DNA from: Opitutus sp. GAS368
GTDB taxonomy: Bacteria > Verrucomicrobiota > Verrucomicrobiia > Opitutales > Opitutaceae
Assembly: GCA_945906965.1 (NCBI GenBank)
Contig: CAMDRP010000004.1
Location: 1-64,000, forward strand
DNA length: 64,000 bases
Direction: 5' to 3'
Shown here piece after piece: positions 1 through 700 of this stretch. The notes under the pieces were generated by a model, which was not told where the DNA came from, ran no database searches, and was given only the letters and a program-made list of their open reading frames with translations. The stretch's first letter is position 1. Each line of letters starts with the position of its first letter. The position numbers were made by a program, and so were the translations under genes.

Positions 1-191
1 CAGAAAACCGCCCCTCTCGGGCTGTTTTCCGCTGTGTTAAATGCGCTCACTCCGGCCATGCCGATGTGATCGCCGCTCAGAATATAATGTCGGCAGGACT
101 TGCCGCCACTGTCCGTGGAGGAGCTTCAGGCTCCGGTGAAGCGGGAACCGCCCCTCAACGCGCCCGCCTGCTTCGCAGGCGTGCTGCTTAA
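1..191 (+). CDS. tnpB: TnpB C-terminal fragment (IS200/IS605 family), 5' part outside window
   Basis: The frame starting at base 3 is open from the left edge to TAA at 189-191 and encodes the tail of an RNA-guided TnpB nuclease. Visible landmarks are a CxxC of the zinc ribbon (CVKC, codons at about 36-47), then GHADVIAAQNI, the usual place of the last RuvC aspartate (HADxxAAxNI), and an Ala/Arg-rich variable tail. The rest of the protein lies left of the window, so its integrity is unknown. The typical right end of such an element follows at once, which supports the call. TnpB uses an RNA made from the element's 3' end to cut DNA at sites next to the transposon's target motif. Confidence 0.85.
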   Translation, partial: ENRPSRAVFRCVKCAHSGHADVIAAQNIMSAGLAATVRGGASGSGEAGTAPQRARLLRRRAA

Positions 192-227
192 GGGAATCCC
201 GGCCCTTTAGGGCCGGGAGGAGGTCAA
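1..227 (+). mobile_element. Right end of an IS200/IS605-type element
   Basis: Downstream of the tnpB stop there is a perfect 8-bp hairpin with a four-base loop (CCCGGCCC 198-205, TTTA, GGGCCGGG 210-217), followed by GAGGAGGTCAA ending at 227. A subterminal imperfect-or-perfect hairpin followed by a short cleavage tetranucleotide is how IS200/IS605 right ends look; TCAA (224-227) matches the right cleavage site known for IS608. The base after 227 resumes a ParE-like reading frame on the other strand, which sets the boundary. The left end and any tnpA lie outside the window. Confidence 0.75.
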
Positions 228-247
228 GGCCCAGATCACAACTATGT
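100..247 (+). ncRNA. Probable omega RNA (TnpB guide RNA), limits approximate
   Basis: In TnpB systems the guide RNA is transcribed across the 3' end of tnpB and the right end, with about 16-20 bases of flanking DNA as guide. Here that would make the 198-217 hairpin part of the scaffold, 227 the last scaffold base, and roughly 228-247 the guide, which lies in the disrupted ParE-like gene. The 5' limit is a guess; only the hairpin and the element boundary are visible. Confidence 0.4.
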
Positions 248-470
248 CGGCTTCAATTGTGTGGTAAATCCCGTAGGGAAACTGGCTGACAAGAAACCGC
301 CTTACTTCATCTTCAATCACACGCCACGTGCTTGGCGCAGCGAGAATCTTGCCGACGCCGACCTCGACCTCATTTAGGAAAGCGTCTCCTAGGCCGGGTA
401 CTTGCCCATTGTAATATTGGCCGGCCGCAATGTATTCCGCCAGCGCCTCTTAGGCGAAGCGAAGTTTCAT
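207..470 (-). pseudogene. ParE/RelE-family toxin, broken by an early stop and an IS insertion
   Basis: Starting at ATG 470-468, which overlaps the antitoxin stop (ATGA), the frame reads MKLRFA, then TAA at 452-450 (codon 7), then continues in the same frame as a recognisable ParE/RelE toxin: EALAEYIAAGQYYN, the central RRFLVSQFPYGIYH and the IVVIWA strand. No good start codon follows the stop. At 228/227 native sequence gives way to the IS right end, which supplies LTSSRP and a stop, so the usual C-terminal GHxxxxPxYW-like end is lost. The toxin would normally cut or poison a cellular target and be neutralised by the upstream gene product. Two independent lesions make it non-functional. Confidence 0.85.
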
Positions 471-700
471 TGCCGCAACGCAGCACGGGCTACTTGGAGC
501 GCTTGATCACCATCGACTAGCGTCGCGGTGCCGGAATGGACCGCTTTCCGGCGGCGGCGGATCTCATTGAGATGGGCGTGTTCGACAGTGGGATCGGCTT
601 GGGCAGAGAGACTATTAAGCAATTTCCCCACGAGCAAAGCGCGCCCCGACCTCGGGAGACCGAGGGCTTCTGCGATAATTTTTTCAGCGGTGGCGGCCAT
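467..700 (-). CDS. Addiction-module antitoxin component (TIGR02574-like)
   Basis: A 77-residue protein resembling the short 'putative addiction module component' family that pairs with ParE/RelE toxins. It has the typical N-terminal helix (IIAEALGLPRSGRALLVGKL), a central acidic segment, and the family-like EIRRRRKAVHSG followed by a V-D-x-x-x-A-L stretch near the C-terminus. Its stop overlaps the start codon of the broken toxin gene, the usual TA order and coupling. The antitoxin itself shows no damage, so it is now an orphan unless it acts on another toxin. No Shine-Dalgarno motif is visible upstream. Confidence 0.8.
   Translation of the reverse strand: MAATAEKIIAEALGLPRSGRALLVGKLLNSLSAQADPTVEHAHLNEIRRRRKAVHSGTATLVDGDQALQVARAALRQ

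What the first reader, a model, noticed from the sequence alone, without database searches (positions are those of the whole stretch)
1..470. IS200/IS605 tnpB element inserted into the tail of a ParE toxin gene
The right end (ending TCAA at 227) joins the toxin frame at codon level: native sequence up to IVVIWA, then IS-coded LTSSRP and stop. If the omega RNA is made, its guide (about 228-247) is derived from this toxin gene, so TnpB would target intact copies of the same toxin gene elsewhere that have the right target motif.
Basis: partly seen in the sequence, partly recalled or inferred. Interest (0 to 1): 0.6.

Follow-up and report, generated by a model that had tools for sequence, protein, structure and literature searches.

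The report
IS605-type element in dead toxin gene
A common bacterial jumping gene of the IS605/TnpB type landed in the tail of a toxin-antitoxin toxin gene that also carries an early stop codon; its RNA guide would match that spot as it does for every such element, but no intact copy of the toxin is left in this genome for it to cut, so it is ordinary.

Summary
Bases 1-227 are the 3' end of tnpB plus the right end of an IS200/IS605-type (tnpB-only) element. At least six other copies in the genome, and more in two sister species, match up to the same TCAA and then diverge. The flank, read on the minus strand, is a ParE-family toxin gene truncated after IVVIWA and running into IS-coded LTSSRP-stop, next to an intact antitoxin gene (467-700).

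tnpB upstream and the left junction cannot be seen, because the contig starts at window base 1. Relatives show the left end is inserted after TTTAT (occasionally CTTAT or ATTAT; TTTAC in a related subfamily). That agrees with the codons expected after IVVIWA (V/I-K).

The right end folds as an omega-RNA-like scaffold, so a guide at 228-247 is plausible. No other site in the genome matches that guide within 3 mismatches, and the nearest intact orthologue lacks the motif and has 3 mismatches in the first 16. Cutting 'intact copies elsewhere' therefore has no visible target. The normal target is this locus just after excision, which is published TnpB biology. Ordinary.

The parts
3..191 (+). 3' part of tnpB (last 62 codons and stop), cut by the contig start
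   Evidence: PF07282 positions 39-60, E 7.9e-5; 97% identical to the C29 copy, which has 237 aa
96..227 (+). predicted omega-RNA scaffold: multibranched fold closed by GACUU/AGGUC next to the element end
   Evidence: MFE -70.2 kcal/mol, z -3.29, 0 of 200 shuffles as stable; same basal helix in the 15-copy consensus fold
198..217 (+). right-end subterminal hairpin CCCGGCCCTTTAGGGCCGGG
   Evidence: sequence; the same hairpin occurs at the left end
224..227 (+). right terminal tetranucleotide TCAA, the element boundary
   Evidence: copies diverge immediately after it
228..247 (+). putative guide, derived from the toxin gene (antisense to the toxin)
   Evidence: position only, by analogy with TnpB systems; unique in the genome within 3 mismatches
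228..470 (-). ParE-family toxin pseudogene: start ATG 470-468, in-frame TAA at 452-450, 3' end cut off by the element
   Evidence: 69% identity over 74 aa to an intact PF05016 orthologue
207..227 (-). element-coded tail LTSSRP plus stop, in frame with the toxin
   Evidence: translation
467..700 (-). intact antitoxin gene, 77 aa, Unstab_antitox (putative addiction module component)
   Evidence: PF09720, E 9.1e-13

Best explanation
A multi-copy, tnpB-only (IS1341-type) member of the IS200/IS605 family inserted by single-strand transposition after a TTTAT-like site that lay antisense across two codons of a chromosomal ParE-type toxin gene. The last ~20 toxin codons are thereby separated from the rest, and the toxin frame ends six IS-coded residues later. 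The toxin is independently dead from a stop at codon 7; the antitoxin survives as an orphan. The 3' end of tnpB and the right end probably form an omega RNA whose guide starts at 228. Its expected target is this same locus when the element has just been excised, so that the cut is repaired from the copy that still holds the element. Shown: right end, copies, toxin truncation, early stop, antitoxin, absence of other guide targets in the genome. Inferred: transposition mechanism, omega-RNA production, TnpB activity, order of the two toxin lesions.
For: Seven right ends of this type in the genome with unrelated flanks. The C29 copy keeps the TnpB RuvC residues D, E, D and the four zinc cysteines (Pfam). 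Left ends start at [T/C/A]TTAT|CTCAG in 26 of 31 collected sites, one of them after allowing for a one-base alignment shift. Both ends lie on one contig in shortened copies (G000:C19, G006:C46, G002:C10). On the toxin strand TTTAT or TTTAC reads ATA-AA or GTA-AA, i.e. I/V-K(N), matching V-K after IWA in the intact orthologues. The omega-RNA fold is more stable than shuffles. A Y1 transposase gene with HUH and catalytic Tyr motifs lies beside a related left end on C36. TnpB as retention nuclease of the excised site: PMC11870625.
Against: The left junction of this very copy and the toxin's 3' remainder are not in the assembly, so a deletion next to the element is not excluded. tnpB of this copy may be incomplete. 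No expression data.
Confidence: 0.85

Rival explanations
1. The element sits beside the toxin through a deletion or rearrangement rather than simple insertion: the toxin's 3' end was removed and lies nowhere in the genome.
For: No left-end contig in the genome carries a ParE C-terminus. In a sister MAG (L090) the same toxin gene was cut at another point by unrelated DNA, apparently the 3' end of a histidine-kinase-like gene, so this gene does suffer rearrangements.
Against: The assembly breaks at these repeats, and five left-end contig ends against more right ends shows that left flanks are missing. The motif predicted at the left junction fits the expected toxin codons.
Confidence: 0.12
2. 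The TnpB guide acts as a defence: it cuts incoming or duplicate intact copies of this toxin gene.
For: The guide position would be complementary to the toxin gene; TnpB can cut element-free plasmid copies of its own site (PMC11870625).
Against: No such copy in the genome; the nearest intact orthologue reads TTCAC next to a guide with 3 of 16 mismatches, and G005 differs more. The resident toxin is dead and the flank is an ordinary one among unrelated flanks of the other copies.
Confidence: 0.03

Closest known systems
IS200/IS605 family, IS1341-type (tnpB-only) elements
   Same: TnpB with RuvC and zinc-ribbon domains, subterminal hairpins, no terminal inverted repeats, TCAA right end, fixed left target motif, no tnpA between left end and tnpB
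   Different: nothing of substance; left motif TTTAT
OMEGA TnpB-omegaRNA systems such as ISDra2
   Same: structured RNA at the tnpB 3' end finishing at the element end with the flank as guide; insertion motif as target motif
   Different: RNA and cleavage untested; the full tnpB of this copy not seen
ParE/RelE toxin with PF09720 (addiction module component) antitoxin
   Same: gene order, ATGA overlap, homology; annotated as RelE/ParE toxin plus addiction module protein on Synechococcus plasmids
   Different: the toxin here is a pseudogene

Membership tests
IS200/IS605, IS1341-type | TnpB (OrfB_IS605, Cas12f1-like TNB) encoded in the element | tested here: met
   PF07282 and PF01385 in the C29 copy; the last third of the TNB domain in the window
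IS200/IS605, IS1341-type | subterminal hairpins and a conserved end tetranucleotide, no inverted repeats | tested here: met
IS200/IS605, IS1341-type | insertion 3' of a conserved short target motif | tested here: met
   NTTAT before CTCAG in 26 of 31 left ends; not for this copy, whose left end is missing
IS200/IS605, IS1341-type | no tnpA in the element | tested here: inconclusive
   the left-end fragment of G002:C54 runs straight into tnpB; this copy is cut by the contig start
OMEGA TnpB nuclease | RuvC D-E-D triad and zinc ribbon | tested here: met
   in the C29 copy, read by eye from the translation; only the last D and one CxxC lie in the window
OMEGA TnpB nuclease | omega RNA expressed with flank-derived guide | not testable with these tools
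   only the fold was computed
ParE toxin (PF05016) | homology to ParE over the whole toxin | tested here: inconclusive
   the window fragment gives no Pfam match itself, but is 69% identical to an orthologue that does
ParE toxin (PF05016) | intact toxin reading frame | tested here: not met
   TAA at codon 7 and loss of the 3' end

The most novel reading that the evidence does not exclude
The element's guide, taken from a toxin gene, makes TnpB an anti-addiction nuclease that destroys incoming intact alleles of that toxin, e.g. on plasmids, while the cell keeps the orphan antitoxin.
Probability: 0.02. Interest if true: 0.5.

Novelty: new member of a known kind. Interest (0 to 1): 0.12.

Why it matters
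It is a clear natural example of a TnpB element whose guide falls inside a toxin gene, and of a toxin-antitoxin pair decaying with the antitoxin left intact. It does not change what is known about either system.

Tried and rejected
Looked for the toxin's 3' end by PF05016 in the genome: six ParE hits elsewhere; the shortest, on C98, is mid-contig with its own short ORF upstream and no element end in view. Read the flanks of the five left-end contig ends (C119, C92, C85, C127, C115) on the toxin strand: none gives a ParE C-terminus. Degenerate pattern left end plus ParE tail: no match. Toxin-antitoxin locus in the genus: only a 65% match in G005 and short matches to other parts. Considered recoding of the TAA at codon 7: rejected, since the orthologues carry ordinary sense codons there. 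A Pfam check of the DNA that cuts the toxin in L090 failed on coordinates and was left at recognition by eye.

Full report
Setting. The window is the first 64 kb of contig C4 of a 190-contig Opitutaceae-like genome, and window base 1 is the contig's first base. Nothing upstream can be read; the break is the usual one inside a repeated element. The family attribution rests on relatives named.

Element. Bases 1-227 recur in the genome at 97-99% identity (C74, C56, C29, C22, C159, C133), with more divergent or shortened copies on C147, C19 and C136. All well-preserved copies share the sequence to TCAA and then differ, so the boundary at 227 is exact and not chance. Bases 3-191 are the last 62 codons of tnpB. 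Copy C29 shows 237 residues with RuvC and zinc-ribbon domains; homologues with open frames of about 400-465 residues lie on C119 and in sister genomes. The left end was found through sister genome G002 (C54) and then on five contig ends of this genome: NTTAT|CTCAGNGGACGGCGCGAAAACCCGGCCCTTTAGGGCCGGGATGAAG; in G002:C54 it runs into tnpB with no tnpA between. The motif is TTTAT, or CTTAT or ATTAT, in 26 of 31 sites, one of them after allowing for a one-base alignment shift; a related subfamily uses TTTAC. Three internally deleted copies hold this left end and this type of right end on one contig (C19, G006:C46, G002:C10). A Y1 transposase that could act in trans lies beside a related left end on C36.

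Toxin gene. On the minus strand the antitoxin (467-700, PF09720) overlaps by ATGA the toxin start at 470-468. An intact orthologue from an Opitutaceae MAG (L089) is 69% identical and is a PF05016 ParE protein; relatives on Synechococcus plasmids are annotated as RelE/ParE toxin beside an addiction module protein. A second MAG (L090, 92% identical over 49 residues) keeps an intact antitoxin but has lost the toxin's 3' half in a different way. Toxin decay with antitoxin retention has therefore happened at least twice. The two lesions in the window cannot be ordered.

Left junction. The toxin's missing end was not found. The insertion motif nevertheless predicts I/V-K(N) as the residues after IVVIWA, and the orthologues have V-K. 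This favours simple insertion over deletion but does not prove it.

Guide. The right end folds into a multibranched structure closed by GACUU/AGGUC next to the boundary (z -3.29; consensus), as expected of an omega RNA. A 20-nt guide from 228 occurs once in the genome within 3 mismatches, at the insertion itself. The nearest intact orthologue (L089) shows TTCAC and three mismatches in 16. Targeting of other toxin copies is thus without a visible target. Published work describes TnpB cutting the element-free version of its own site to retain or spread the element (PMC11870625); that suffices here.

Verdict. A correct and careful observation of an ordinary arrangement.

Noticed in passing
G000:C72:6444-6497 (L097), C6:52058-52111 (L100); G002:C7:317-370, C49:15874-15927; G006:C103:5681-5734: Tiny ~50-nt elements made of the left end, one hairpin and the right end of this family, with exact boundaries (TTTAT left, TCAA right) at unrelated loci. 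They resemble the 52-bp terminal-only PATE of ISHwa23 in Haloquadratum (PMC3119063); the reversed-pattern control gave no match.
   Followed up: partly
L019:1603-2904 (C119): A second gene, facing another tnpB element's right end, also finishes in the IS-coded tail LTSSRP: this end supplies the same six residues and stop whenever it joins in that frame.
   Followed up: no
L090:1930-2301: In a sister MAG the same toxin gene is cut by DNA that reads, on the other strand, as the end of a histidine-kinase-like gene (FEPFFSTKFDGRGLGL), while the antitoxin is intact.
   Followed up: partly
L051:1714-1990 (G005:C1): The G005 orthologue of the toxin has an in-frame stop where the intact orthologue has the Trp of PDYW; it may be slightly shortened or decaying too.
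   Followed up: no
L086/L093 (G000:C36:1-460): Apparently intact Y1 transposase gene whose 3' end overlaps a left end with TTTAC motif: a possible trans-acting source for the tnpB-only copies.
   Followed up: partly
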